This document shows, piece by piece, positions 4,504-35,500 of a DNA stretch of 64,000 nucleotides. Under the pieces are notes generated by a model. It saw only the letters and a list, made by a program, of their open reading frames with translations. It did no database searches and was not told where the DNA came from. The DNA is taken from positions 332,001 through 396,000 of the forward strand of contig JAOTON010002232.1 in the NCBI GenBank assembly GCA_034440635.1. Direction: 5' to 3'. Numbering within the stretch: position 1 is the stretch's first letter; every line of letters starts with the position of its first letter. The position numbers and the translations under genes were made by a program. Origin of the DNA: Lepas anatifera. Lineage: Eukaryota; Arthropoda; Thecostraca; Lepadidae.

Positions 4504-7500
4504 GTAAGTATGCCCTGTGCCATGGGATTTACCTCACCATGTTTAAATTTTCAGATCAGCTTTTTATTGTCAGCTGCATTAGAATCGACACTACGCTCGC
4601 TTTCAGTCATGCCGCCTATTATTCCATTCATGCCATGTAAGTTGCACTGTAGGGCCCTTGTGACGTCAGTGACCGGGATAACCCTGTGTAGCAGCCAGCA
4701 CCAGAGGGAGAGGCGGCATCCACCTCGCCAGAGTCGACCCTGGACCTCAGCTTCACGCACGGCTTCATCGCCTCGCTCTCCGTCATCATCGTCTCCGAGC
4801 TAGGCGACAAGACCTTCTTCATCGCGGCCATCATGTCGATGCAGCACTCGCGTCTGACTGTGTTCCTGGGTGCCATCGCGGCCCTGTTCACCATGACAGT
4901 GCTCTCAGGTGAGTGGGCGGCGGCGCCCCGCCATGGCTTCTGGCACAGGAGGACATTTTCCTCGGTCTGGAATATTTCTGGACTTATGCAAGACCCTCTG
5001 GTGATGATCATCTCTAATTGATGTAAGATCCTCTGGTGAGGATCATTTCTGACTGATGCTGGACACTGGTGATGATCATTTCTGACTAATGCAAGATCCT
5101 CTGGTGATGATTATTCCTGATTGATGCTAGATCCTCTGGTGAGGATCATGTCTCACTCATGTTGGACCGTGCGGTGATGACCACTCCTAATTGGTGCTAG
5201 ATCCTCCGGAGATGATCATGTCTCACTGATGCTGGACCCTGTGGTGATGATCTGGAGGTTGTCAATGTCGGCTGTAGCAGCTGGGGGCTGACAATATGCA
5301 TTCCAAGTGAGTTTCTCCGTATCGTCCGAGGACACTGCTTCCGCTCGAGGCGCGGAGTCCGGGAGCGGTCTGCCTGCTCTGGTGTATTCAACCTTCAATC
5401 GAATGGAAAGCAGACTTAAGCCCAGTCCCACTGCCCGACCGTTTACCTATTCCGTTATTACGCTGAGGAACGCGGCTCATTTAAATCTGAAGTGATGTGA
5501 TGGCTTTAAAGTGAACCAGGCACCTTGGTGCAATTCTGTACTGGAGTGGTTTCAGTGACATTTTAATTGAAAATGTTGAATTTGACCGTGTTTTTGTTGT
5601 TGAAAAATGGCTAAGAGGCCCATAGTTCGTATTACTCCATTTCCCTTTGCTGTAGGTGAAAAGTCTCCCGGCGTGACGTCGTGATCTGGTAACGCTTCGT
5701 GCTGCGTTGAACCTGTTATTTGCGCCGAAATACGAATCAATATGAAGCGTTTTTAGCTCTAAGAGCCAGCCTAATGTTACGACCAAACTGCCACATATAA
5801 ATTTTGTTATTTTCCAGATATAATAAACACTATTTGAGGTTTGAAACTAGTCATCGAAATAAGTCCTGCGCGTTTATAATCGTCATTACCAAAGTCGCGC
5901 TGAGTACCTAGGTTTTAAAGAGCGCCTAGCACAGAGTTTTTTAAGAGGTCTAGCAAGAAAAATGTGTCCTCACAACGGAGTTTGAGCAGTATGTCACGTT
6001 GCCATGGTTACTAATAGTTGCCTAATACCGCGCGGTCACTGACTCCCGAGGAGGACGGGGTCGACTGGGAGTTAATTTGTACCTTTTTTCGTCTCTGACG
6101 GTATGTATGCGAAGAAAAAAGACAAGTGGCAAATGCAAAGACAAATGAAATATCTACCAAGTGGTTTCTCGGCAGGTTTCATCACCTGGCTATGCCGGTT
6201 CAAATCCCGTCATGAAGGTGCCTTTAAATTGTGCCGAGAGAATTTCCAATTTCCGAGAGAATAAGATCGCAATGTTCTTAAAATCTTGCTTGGTATACGG
6301 GGTATTTGGAGTTGGGGAATTGTCCTGTTCTAAAACTCTTCGCAGGGACCTAAATTCAGAACAGGAGTTTTTCAACTGCTTTTTTGCACGTTAATTGAAA
6401 CATTGGGTTCCAAACAATCAAAGACAAACCCGGGGAAGGGGGCATAGTCCGCCTGACCAGCGGTGGTCCCCCCATACCTCCGATGACGCCCCCTGCAATT
6501 TGGCTTCTCTGCCCAGGATTCGAGTGATGGCGCCCCTCTGGTTCAGAATGTACTGCCTTCATCGGGTACCCCCTCCCTCTGATCGGGTGTCCGGTATCAA
6601 CTGACTATGAAAGCCATCGCATTTATAATATACTTATAATCAAAATAAAAAAGGAAGTTGGCGGCCTCAACTTAACACGCACATTGGCGGGAGTCTGAGC
6701 CACCTTCGCTTTGACGGGGGGAGGGGGCGGGTACCCCTATGGTGTGGAGAACCACGTTAGATAAAAAAACAGTAAATGGTGTTGGATAGCCCATCAAATT
6801 CTCTTTAGAAAACAATTGAACCATTTTTTTGCTAGGTCACATTTAAAGTCACCAGAGGTCAAGTATTGCGCAAGGCATCGCGAGGCATAGGGTAGATGAA
6901 GGTTTTCAGTCATTACATCTGAACTGGTAAGGATAGAGGAAAAAATCTTGGTCATTAAAATCCTCGCAGCAAGCCAAATCGAATGAGGTTTAATATGATC
7001 TTGCTGGGTCAAATCAGGTCAAATTAGGTCAAAACGATTATTATTAGAAGTGCAAAGATGATGCAAACTTAATGCCGTTAAAATAAATGCTCTACCACCA
7101 TCCATTATTGAGTTATTTAGTTTAAACCATTTAACCCATGTATTTCCAATGGAGAGGACATGGCTCGTACCTGACCTTAGGTCATCGATATCTAAAATAC
7201 CGGAATACATTTTGTAGAATTCGGTGGGCTCATTTTGTGATGAGTTTCAATCGGATAAGTTCACCCTGTCCTGACTTATGCTATTTCAACTTTTTTACAT
7301 GAGGTCACTTGACCTGGACTGGTGACCTAACCTGAGATGACCCAAACGTAAAATTTTGTTTTAAGTAAAAATTTTCAAATAAAAGTTATACCAAGTATGT
7401 CGGCGCTATGCGGCGCCGTTTTTATTTTAGCTCAAAAACACACCAAGGGGGAGGGGCGGTGGTGTTAATTAAAAGTATTGATTGATCCTTTGTAGATTGA

Positions 7501-32500: not shown

Positions 32501-35500
32501 CTGCACCGTTCTACTGAGCCACGACCGCCCCAGACCAGACACTGCCCCGAGGCAGCGTCCTGCACCGTTCTACCGAGTCACGACCCCTCCCACCCCTCCA
32601 GACACTGCTCCGAGGCAGCGTCCTGCACCGTTCTACTGAGCCACGACCCCCAGACCAGACACTGCCCCGAGGCAGCGTCCTGCACCGTTCTACCGAGTCA
32701 CGACCCCTCCCCGTCCCACCTCTCCAGACACTGCTCCGAGGCAGCGTCCTGCACCGTTCTACCGAGTCACGACCCCTCCCACCCCTCCAGACACTGCCCG
32801 AGGCAGCGTCCTGCACCGTTCTACTGAGCCACGACCCCCAGACCAGACACTGCCCCGAGGCAGCGTCCTGCACCGTTCTACCGAGTCACGACCCCTCCCC
32901 GTCCCACCCTCCAGACACTGCCCCGAGGCAGCGTCCTGCACCGTTCTACCGAGTCACGACCCCTCCCACCCCTCCAGACACTGCTCCGAGGCAGCGTCCT
33001 GCACCGTTCTACTGAGCCACGACCCCCAGACCAGACACTGCCCCGAGGCAGCGTCCTGCACCGTTCTACCGAGTCACGACCCCTCCCCGTCCCACCTCCC
33101 AGACACTGCCCCGAGGCAGCGTCCTGCACCGTTCTACCGAGTCACGACCCCCCCACCCCTCCAGACACGCTCCGAGGCAGCGTCCTGCACCGTTCTACTG
33201 AGCCACGCCCCCCAGACCTACACTGCCCGAGGCAGCGTCCTGCACCGTTCTACCGAGTACAACCCTCCCCGTCCCACCTCTCCAGACACTGCCCGAGGCA
33301 GCGTCCTGCACCGTTCTACTGAACCACGACCCCCAGACCAGACACGCCCCGAGGCAGCGTCCTGCACCGTTCTACCGAGTCACGACCCCTCCCCGTCCCA
33401 CCTCTCCAGACACTGCCCGAGGCAGCGTCCTGCACCGTTCTACTGAGCCACGACCCCTCCCCCCCACCCTCCAGACACTGCCCGAGGCAGCGTCCTGCAC
33501 CGTTCTACTGAGCCACGACCCCCCCAGACCAGACCCTGCCCCGAGGCAGCGTCCTGCACCGTTCTACCGAGCCACGACCCTCCCGTCCCACCTCTCCAGA
33601 CACTGCTCCGAGGCAGCGTCTTGCACCGTTCTACCGAGCCACGACCCCCTTCCCCTGCCACCCCTCCAGACACTGCTCCGAGGCAGCGTCCTGCACCGTT
33701 CTACCGAGTCACGACCCCCCCTCCCTCCACCACACCTGGCACTGCCCGAGGCAGCGTCCTGCACCGTTCTACCGAGTCACGACCCCCCCTCCCTCCACCA
33801 CACCGGCACTGCCCGAGGTAGCGTCCTGCACCGTTCTACCGAGTCACGACCCCCCCCCTCCCCTCCACCACACCTGGCACTGCTCCGAGGCAGCGTCCTG
33901 CACCGTTCTACCGAGTCACGACCCCCTCCCTCCCCTCCACCACACCTGGCACTGCTCCGAGGTAGCGTCCTGCACCGTTCTACCGAGCCGGCGCTCACCC
34001 GTGCTGAAGCCGACGCGTTTGTGACACTTGGTGAACTCGACGTTGAAGAAGGTGACGAAGGCCTGGACGTAGTCGTTGCGGCGTACCTGCAGCACAAATG
34101 GCGACGAGAACGCCAGCTCTGACTTCTTAATGGTGCACAGGTCCACCTCCTTCAGTAGGCACGAGTTGGTCACCACCTGCGCAGGACATGGTGAAATCAA
34201 TGACGGGGCCGTGAATGAAGTCCAAACCCCTCCTGACGGGTGATTTTCCCATGGCTAACTGGGAAAGGAGTTCCACCAGTCAATCCACCCACTGCGCCAC
34301 TGCCCAGATGTGCTGGGGACGTGCACAACCAGAGGGGAGTTCACCCCACCTGGGGGAATGGGAGTGACCTGAGGGGAAGTCACAACAGCCTAACGGGAAG
34401 TATGTGACTGGCCAGCGTGAGAACCCCAGCTGTCTGAAGGGGGAGCAACGCCACTGAGGCAAGCCACACGAGGCCGGCACAGCGTCCGTAAGTCAGCCCA
34501 ACCCTTCTGGAGGAGGACTGCCCTGATTTTGGAGGGCTGATCTTTGTGTGGGGGTGGTCTATCTGTGGGGGACAGATCTTTGCACGGGGATGGATCCTTT
34601 ACCTGTCCGCACAGGGCGGATCTTTGTGTGAAGGTGCTCTACCCGCAGGAGACAGATCTTTGCGAGTGGATGACCTGTCCGCGGGAGGCTGACCTTTGCG
34701 TCGGGGAGCGACCTGTCTGCGGGGGTCTGACCTTGATGTGGTGGAGTAACCTGTCTGTGGTGGTCTGACCTTTGCGTCGGGAGTGACCCGACTGTGGGGG
34801 GTAGGACCTTCCGTCGGGGAGTGACCCGACTGTGGGGGTCTGACCTTTGCGTCAGGGAATAACCTGTCTGTAGGGGTCTGACCTTTGCGTCGGGGAGTGA
34901 CCTGTTCGCGGGAGACTTATCTTTGAGTTGCAGTGACCTGTCTGTGGGGTCTGATCTTAGCGAGGTGGAGTAACCTGTCTGTGAGGGTCAATCCTTGCGT
35001 GGGGGAGTGACCTGTTCGAGGGAGATTTATCTTTGAGGAGGAGAATGACCTGTCTGTGGAGGTCCGATCTTCGCGTGGTGGAGTAACCTGTCTGTGGGGG
35101 TCCAATCTTCGCGTGGTGGAGTAACCTGTTTGTGGAGGTCCGATCTTCGCGTGGTGGAGTAACCTGTCTGTGGGGGTCCAATCTTCGCGTGGTGGAGTAA
35201 CCTGTTTGTGGGGGTCCGATCTTCGCGTGGTGGAGTAACCTGTCTGTGAGGGTCTGATCTTTGCGTGGGGAGTGACCAGTCTGCGAGGGACTGACCTGTT
35301 TGTGGTCCACCACGTCCACAAGCGGCTCGGAAACGGCCACCTCCCGGATGCAGCTCATGTCGAAGCCGTAGACGTCGTCCCACCAGTTGATCTTGTCGTC
35401 CTTGTACTGGCGATCCTGCCGAGCAGAGGCCGCCCTCGTGGGTCAAGCATTGAACTCTAGTCTGTGGTAAACTGATGTTTTGTGCACAGGCCCGAGTCTT

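What the first reader, a model, noticed from the sequence alone, without database searches (positions are those of the whole stretch)
4909..35415. Minisatellites anchored at splice junctions in two neighbouring genes
Seen: distinct tandem arrays lie near junctions of TMEM165 (after exon 2, before exon 3, at the exon 4 donor, after exon 5, before exon 6) and PRMT1 (exon 4, 5 and 6 donors, exon 6 acceptor, stop codon). Units are unrelated to each other, so this is not one spreading family. Several units include or begin within a few bases of the junction itself. Inference: replication- or transcription-linked slippage (for example at R-loops or at GT/AG-rich borders) repeatedly seeds arrays at exon edges in this genome. 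This could create many decoy splice sites and variable introns.
Basis: partly seen in the sequence, partly recalled or inferred. Interest (0 to 1): 0.75.

Follow-up and report, generated by a model that had tools for sequence, protein, structure and literature searches.

The report
Tandem repeats born across exon edges
In a goose barnacle genome many introns carry a stack of repeats whose unit is a copy of the exon-intron boundary itself, a pattern described before in lancelets, which suggests that gene edges can be hot spots where new repeats are born.

Summary
The source is a goose barnacle, most likely Lepas anatifera; the genes are TMEM165 and PRMT1. I tested the claim on 57 introns of chaperonin, kinesin and myosin genes fetched without looking at repeats. 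Ten of 18 arrays end within 20 bp of a junction, against 1.26 expected (0 of 200,000 placements reached ten); nine are at acceptors. Seven of these ten contain clear copies of the junction with 5-49 bp of exon, so those arrays began astride the boundary. PRMT1 exon 4 and TMEM165 exon 4 show the same; five other window sites do not. This is the 'mirage' architecture described in lancelet Adh, troponin C, globin and PGBD5 genes. My searches found no report in barnacles. A PRMT1 paralogue with introns at the same places has no such arrays, so there they were added to old introns. Why exon edges, above all acceptors, are about 30-fold hot per unique base, and how splicing copes, is not shown here.

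The parts
4372..18814 (+). TMEM165 (GDT1) gene, 6 coding exons
4909..15338 (+). TMEM165 intron 2
   Evidence: junctions from sequence and conserved exons
4974..5252 (+). 35-bp array, 8 copies, 65 bp after exon 2 donor; no significant junction copy
14238..15305 (+). 26/53-bp arrays ending 33 bp before exon 3 acceptor; no significant junction copy
15931..16069 (+). two-copy duplication of the exon 4 3' end plus donor (15931-16004 and 16005-16069); real donor GT 15986, decoy GT 16051
   Evidence: sequence; local alignment
16919..17047 (+). 52-bp array 325 bp after exon 5 donor; not junction-anchored
18587..18683 (+). 51-bp array, 60 bp before exon 6 acceptor; no significant junction copy
26516..42377 (-). 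PRMT1 gene, 7 exons matched; the start codon was not fixed
26219..26522 (-). 32-bp array straddling the PRMT1 stop codon (TAA at 26516-26518); unit carries CGC TAA CTCAGGTGTG, 10 occurrences with the real one
30269..30832 (-). 22-bp array, 43 bp after PRMT1 exon 6 donor; no significant junction copy
31038..31140 (-). 21-bp array, 40 bp before PRMT1 exon 6 acceptor; no significant junction copy
31996..33989 (-). 2-kb array (about 65-68-bp unit) starting 9 bp after PRMT1 exon 5 donor; copies the intron side of the junction, no exon bases
34655..35297 (-). 38-bp array reaching the PRMT1 exon 4 donor (last exon base 35296); an internal unit resembles the exon end plus donor (11 exon bp)

Best explanation
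These are mirage-type minisatellites. A short tandem duplication arises astride the boundary between constrained exon and free intron, so the unit holds the end of the exon, the splice site and some intron. The copy that touches the exon stays fixed by selection on protein and splicing; the extra copies are intronic, are free to multiply by slippage or unequal exchange, and drift. Such duplications are tolerated because splicing (or, at the stop codon, lying in the 3' UTR) keeps the copies out of the protein. Shown: anchoring of arrays at junctions, exon bases inside intronic units, unrelated units at different loci, absence from a PRMT1 paralogue with the same introns. Inferred: growth by slippage or exchange, normal use of the exon-proximal splice site, and a higher birth or survival rate at exon edges, strongest at acceptors. 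The first two rivals below are sub-readings of why the edges are favoured, so the odds do not add to one.
For: Repeat-blind sample: 57 introns in 19 gene segments, 18 arrays, 10 within 20 bp of a junction against 1.26 expected (holds for higher score and period limits and after dropping C2055 and C1578). Of 11 sample arrays near junctions aligned, 8 score clearly above 300 shuffles; 7 of these carry 5 or more exon bases: C624 38, C112 40, C1578 49, C1508 16, C1737 10 (19 by array overlap), C1922 8, C2055 5. Exon-edge 25-mers recur in the adjacent intron at 7 of 106 sample edges (5 of the 7 in arrays), against 0 of 610 comparisons with other genes' introns and 0 of 122 reversed introns. PRMT1 paralogue: introns 2-6 at the same places, no junction arrays. 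Lancelet precedent with reportedly normal splicing.
Against: Five of the seven window arrays aligned (TMEM165 intron 2 both ends, intron 5 acceptor, PRMT1 exon 6 both sides) show no junction copy and could be ordinary arrays near exons. Base for base a junction is not more often repeated than an intron interior: 6 of 114 junctions against 228 of 1330 interior windows, or 84 of 1181 outside anchored arrays; the excess is in array end-points. A first null that rotated introns circularly gave p=0.0096 for acceptors and nothing for both ends together (10 against 10.9); I replaced it because it lets long arrays wrap round. Two of the ten anchored calls (C1578 intron 1, C410) rest on weak splice-site fits. 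No RNA, no second allele and no second barnacle genome was available.
Confidence: 0.72

Rival explanations
1. Constraint-edge survivorship without a splicing cause: tandem duplications arise often in GC-rich DNA in and around exons; those inside exons are purged and only those at the margin survive.
For: Exon edges are GC-rich (0.62) against non-array intron (0.46), arrays 0.59, and intron ends are richer than the middle (0.49 and 0.53 against 0.44). One array straddles a stop codon.
Against: Does not by itself explain 9 acceptors against 1 donor in the blind sample.
Confidence: 0.4
2. Splicing- or transcription-coupled mutation: nascent-RNA events at the 3' splice site (R-loops, polymerase pausing) make local breaks that are repaired with short tandem duplication.
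For: Nine acceptors against one donor in the blind sample and about 31-fold higher array start rate per unique base within 20 bp of junctions.
Against: No direct evidence; in the window, within 20 bp, there are 2 donors and 0 acceptors; a stop codon is also hit.
Confidence: 0.25
3. The arrays are relics of intron creation (Rogers-type tandem duplication with AG|GT, or introner elements).
For: Some arrays fill most of the intron (C1508, 879 of 975 bp); the lancelet globin paper proposes this route.
Against: The PRMT1 paralogue has introns at the same positions without arrays; the array-bearing introns keep unique sequence; units are not related between loci.
Confidence: 0.06
4. Chance clustering picked out by a reader looking for patterns.
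For: The window was chosen because arrays were noticed.
Against: The repeat-blind sample shows the same; none of 200,000 random placements reached it.
Confidence: 0.01

Closest known systems
Mirages of lancelet genes (Adh3, troponin C, globins BflGb6 and BflGb9, PGBD5), PMC3087553 and PMC3902484
   Same: Tandem duplications spanning an exon/intron boundary, unit length different between genes, many units with AG or GT, at either end of introns (passages seen).
   Different: Barnacle instead of cephalochordate; here counted on a blind sample (10 of 57 introns with an array within 20 bp of a junction, 7 with clear exon copies), up to 45 copies and 1.7 kb in the sample, mostly acceptors there, and a case at a stop codon. 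No RNA or allele data here.
Human IFI6 (6-16, G1P3) minisatellite giving multiple splice donor sites (recalled; one search lists two papers that hold the terms, not read)
   Same: Array at an exon end whose units carry donor sites (recalled).
   Different: A single human gene, donors used in mRNA (recalled); here several loci and mostly acceptors.
Intron gain by tandem genomic duplication (for example potato RdRp, PMC4974935; start of abstract seen)
   Same: A tandem duplication within a gene tied to intron structure.
   Different: In the one case tested here (PRMT1) the introns already existed and only gained copies.

Membership tests
Mirage (boundary-spanning minisatellite) | Repeat unit spans an exon/intron boundary | tested here: met
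   clear with 5 or more exon bases in 7 of 11 sample arrays and in PRMT1 exon 4; TMEM165 exon 4 duplication. Not met for five window arrays and three of the ten anchored sample arrays (4 exon bases in C1578 intron 1, marginal in C1578 intron 4, none in C410).
Mirage (boundary-spanning minisatellite) | Units carry splice dinucleotides | tested here: met
   AG in 11 of 11, 13 of 13, 16 of 16 and 20 of 20 recognised copies in four arrays; three anchored arrays had no recognised copy; copies were found with an edit limit, so retention is an upper estimate
Mirage (boundary-spanning minisatellite) | Unit sequence is private to each gene | tested here: met
   60 unit rows, one related pair, an interior satellite at two loci; but the C1508 array has 72-73% similar arrays at C1218 and weaker matches elsewhere
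Mirage (boundary-spanning minisatellite) | Regular splicing continues | not testable with these tools
   no RNA; reported for lancelet
Mirage (boundary-spanning minisatellite) | Allelic or somatic length instability | not testable with these tools
   no second near-identical copy found for the 11 flanks searched
Introner element | Related sequences inserted at many loci that create introns | tested here: not met
   units unrelated; introns present without arrays in the PRMT1 paralogue
Rogers-type intron gain | Intron itself arises from the duplication | tested here: not met
   for PRMT1 introns 4-6 the paralogue has the introns without arrays; other genes not tested

The most novel reading that the evidence does not exclude
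Barnacle genomes have a directed mutational process that plants tandem duplications at 3' splice sites, about 30 times more often per base than inside introns, so that splicing or nascent transcription itself drives local DNA duplication and intron growth; the lancelet cases would be a second, independent instance.
Probability: 0.25. Interest if true: 0.85.

Novelty: new member of a known kind. Interest (0 to 1): 0.62.

Why it matters
In the papers that I could see, boundary-spanning minisatellites are described for lancelets. Junction-anchored arrays in about one intron in six of a small barnacle sample suggest that they are a recurrent mode of intron growth, give a genome in which their birth can be counted, and make it testable whether the spliceosome or transcription shapes where DNA duplicates. 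They also warn gene predictors: 20 close copies of an acceptor can lie next to the real one.

Tried and rejected
A circular-rotation null (53 introns) was rejected because long arrays wrap from one intron end to the other; it gave acceptors 9 against 5.45 (p=0.0096) and both ends 10 against 10.9 (p=0.73). Non-wrapping placement was used instead. Coverage by distance shows no peak at junctions; the signal is in array ends.

Haplotype comparison: the 11 flanks searched (9 sample introns, PRMT1 exon 4, TMEM165 intron 2) gave no second near-identical copy (only the best candidates are scored there), so length variation between alleles could not be tested. The weaker matches were an 85% copy 7 kb away on C410, the 85% PRMT1 paralogue, and a dispersed repeat in one C1578 flank. 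A spreading-family origin was rejected, with the caveat. Whole-genome TRF was not possible. A PRMT1 protein search for other barnacles was considered and not run.

Intron rows left out before counting: of 71 candidate introns, 57 were fitted, 9 skipped because the exon matches lay too far apart in the family model, and 5 gave no acceptable junction pair. One search shows that one skipped stretch (C2055) holds a further array running up to an exon match, another (C975) an interior array, and the 5 unfitted ones no array. Only part of the planned loci was fetched (see below).
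Full report
Where the window comes from. The window is G000:C2088:332001-396000 of a 1.04-Gb animal assembly in 2126 contigs. A COX1 reading frame in the same assembly (C609, a 340-kb contig, so probably a nuclear copy) is 100% identical over 446 residues to Lepas anatifera COX1 and 95% to an acorn barnacle cluster. I take the source as a goose barnacle, probably L. anatifera.

The genes. TMEM165 (plus strand, Pfam GDT1) has coding exons at about 4372-4503, 4692-4908, 15339-15514, 15827-15985, 16490-16594 and 18744-18814. 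PRMT1 (minus strand) has exon matches near 42377-42243, 40197-39976, 39283-39083, then exon 4 ending at 35296, exon 5 34176-33999, exon 6 30997-30876, exon 7 from 26599 to the stop at 26516. Exon ends used in tests were set by hand from homology, frame and GT/AG; PRMT1 introns 1-3 were not refined.

The observation. TRF finds the arrays named. Measured gaps are in the observation check. Nine of ten named sites hold; the array after TMEM165 exon 5 is 325 bp from the donor and no closer than chance. One site, the TMEM165 exon 4 donor, is a two-copy duplication of the exon end and donor that TRF does not call (15931-16004 and 16005-16069). Random placement within 8 window introns expects 0.92 intron ends within 70 bp of an array; 7 are seen.

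A sample chosen without sight of repeats. Because the window was picked for its repeats, I located exons of other genes by protein family in the same genome (myosin, chaperonin, kinesin), fetched DNA around the chaperonin genes, eight kinesins and two myosins, joined neighbouring exon matches by a frame-consistent GT-AG fit, and ran TRF with the settings. Of 71 candidate introns 57 were fitted, 9 skipped and 5 not fitted. The 57 introns (68,976 bp) hold 18 arrays of 40 bp or more in 13 introns. Ten arrays, in 10 introns of 8 of 19 gene segments, end within 20 bp of a junction: 9 acceptors and 1 donor. Placement of the same arrays at random in the unique part of their own introns gives 1.26 on average, at most 7 in 200,000 trials. 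The result holds for higher score and period limits and after dropping C2055 and C1578 (6 against 0.98, none of 100,000). Per unique base, arrays start about 31 times more often within 20 bp of a junction than elsewhere in introns (4.39 against 0.14 per kb). Two anchored cases, C1578 intron 1 and C410, rest on weak splice-site fits.

What the units contain. In the chaperonin gene on C624 an array of twelve 54-bp units runs through the acceptor; the unit holds the acceptor and the first 38 exon bases, CCTTACCTCAG followed by GTGGGAGACGGCACCACGTCAGTGATCGTGCTGACCGG, with small changes between copies. The same is seen with 40 exon bases (C112, 82-bp unit), 49 (C1578, 134-bp unit, two copies), 16 (C1508, 41-bp unit, 21 copies), 8 (C1922), 5 (C2055, 39-bp unit, 45 copies), and at a donor on C1737 with a 42-bp unit. 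One search aligned 25 intron plus 50 exon bases of each junction to the array body with the nearest copy set aside, against 300 shuffles. Of the 11 sample arrays near junctions, 7 have a clear junction copy with five or more exon bases; C1578 intron 1 has a clear copy of the intron side with 4 exon bases; C1578 intron 4 is marginal (27 against a shuffle maximum of 25); C410 and the short 27-bp C112 repeat have none. Of the 7 window arrays aligned, PRMT1 exon 4 has a junction copy, PRMT1 exon 5 donor a copy of the intron side only, and the other five none. The PRMT1 stop-codon array, not in that call, carries the last codon and the TAA in its unit.

Controls that limit the claim. Exon-edge 25-mers recur in the adjacent intron (score 16 or more) for 7 of 106 sample edges and 1 of 16 window edges, against 0 of 610 comparisons with other introns, 0 of 122 reversed introns and 2 of 244 exon-interior windows, both at junctions already counted; two of the seven (C67 and another C1922 intron) are not in TRF arrays. 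A short straddling motif recurs for 6 of 114 junctions, against 4 of 1140 chimeric motifs. But 228 of 1330 interior intron windows, or 84 of 1181 outside anchored arrays, are also locally repeated: repeats are common throughout these introns, and what is special about junctions is that arrays begin there. The first null, circular rotation, gave a much weaker result for the reason stated in Tried and rejected.

Age and origin. A PRMT1 paralogue on C1737:453500-457700 has introns 2-6 at the same places. The one after exon 4 is about 0.22 kb against 1.12 kb in the window; no array touches these junctions or its stop codon, the only TRF row in the stretch being an 18-bp doublet inside the last exon. 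So the PRMT1 introns are older than the arrays, unless the paralogue lost them. Across loci the units are not related apart from one interior satellite pair; the exception to note is that the C1508 array has 72-73% similar arrays on C1218 and weaker matches on C1976, C321 and C1142, which I did not follow.

How it works. One search cut 12 arrays into units. In the five with clear junction copies the unit touching the exon is less diverged from the rest than the far unit (0.04 against 0.06, 0.11 against 0.26, 0.05 against 0.13, 0.07 against 0.13, and 0.14 against 0.25 for PRMT1 exon 4). In the other seven there is no common order: lower in 2, equal in 1 (C1578 intron 1, 4 exon bases), higher in 4, the stop-codon array among them. 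So among the seven arrays with any coding bases in the unit the order holds in five. This fits a founder copy held by selection at the exon, with copies spreading and drifting on the free side, but is only suggestive. Use of a decoy acceptor would shift the frame in 35 of 60 recognised copies in four arrays (9 of 11 on C624, 7 of 13 on C1922, 6 of 16 on C2055, 13 of 20 on C1508; stops in the rest not checked), so choice of the exon-proximal site should matter; exon definition would favour it (general knowledge), and lancelet work reports normal splicing. Whether exon edges are hot for mutation or merely the place where GC-rich, exon-born duplications survive is open. GC falls from 0.62 at exon edges to 0.46 in non-array introns while arrays are at 0.59, which fits survivorship; the acceptor bias does not follow from it.

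What is known. The lancelet globin paper calls such structures mirages and says that they may be general in cephalochordates (passages); the PGBD5 paper lists Adh, troponin C, globin and PGBD5 cases (passage). The original Adh paper was not among the search results and was not seen. Searches for barnacle with minisatellite, barnacle with genome, tandem repeats and introns, mirages with minisatellites and splice and Lepas anatifera with genome assembly listed no title on this in barnacles. The Pollicipes genome paper reports 3.2% of the genome as repeats by RepeatMasker, nearly all simple or low-complexity (passage). The library holds open-licence papers only.

Verdict. Real, frequent in the introns sampled, and of a known kind in a new phylum as far as my searches reach. 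The mechanism at the DNA level is not established.

Noticed in passing
G000:C1737:453500-457700 (L034): A second PRMT1-like gene with the same intron positions and no junction arrays.
   Followed up: yes
window 16490-16505: TMEM165 exon 5 does not join exon 4 in frame by one base at a run of five G (read by eye); a homopolymer error in the assembly or a real frameshift.
   Followed up: no
G000: The ubiquitin hydrolase family (UCH) rings at 137 places, many of them full-length matches of about 990 bp in one piece with very close scores, which suggests a multicopy mobile element carrying the domain.
   Followed up: no
window 46058-47394: 152-bp unit, 8.8 copies, 96% matches, outside any gene identified here.
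   Followed up: no
window 59432-61470: Stretch with many short degenerate repeats of about 20 bp (CAGATCAGCTCA-like).
   Followed up: no
window 27701-28165: Open frame in PRMT1 intron 6 with a retrotransposon RNase H-like motif (motif recalled, not searched).
   Followed up: no
G000:C1218:417572-420739: Arrays 72-73% similar to the C1508 kinesin junction array; relation unexplained.
   Followed up: no
L015 (C1922 near 162461) and L027 (C2055 near 563901): Interior arrays of 70-73 bp with about 92% alike units at two loci: a satellite shared between loci, unlike the private junction arrays.
   Followed up: partly
L018/L019, C1578 intron 3 flank (query 848-962): A dispersed repeat in this intron matches at 77-79% at many other places in the genome.
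   Followed up: no
G000:C609:133779-135116 and others: COX1 copies in large contigs, one open under the mitochondrial code and identical to the Lepas COX1 protein, others broken: nuclear copies of mitochondrial DNA or assembly joins.
   Followed up: no
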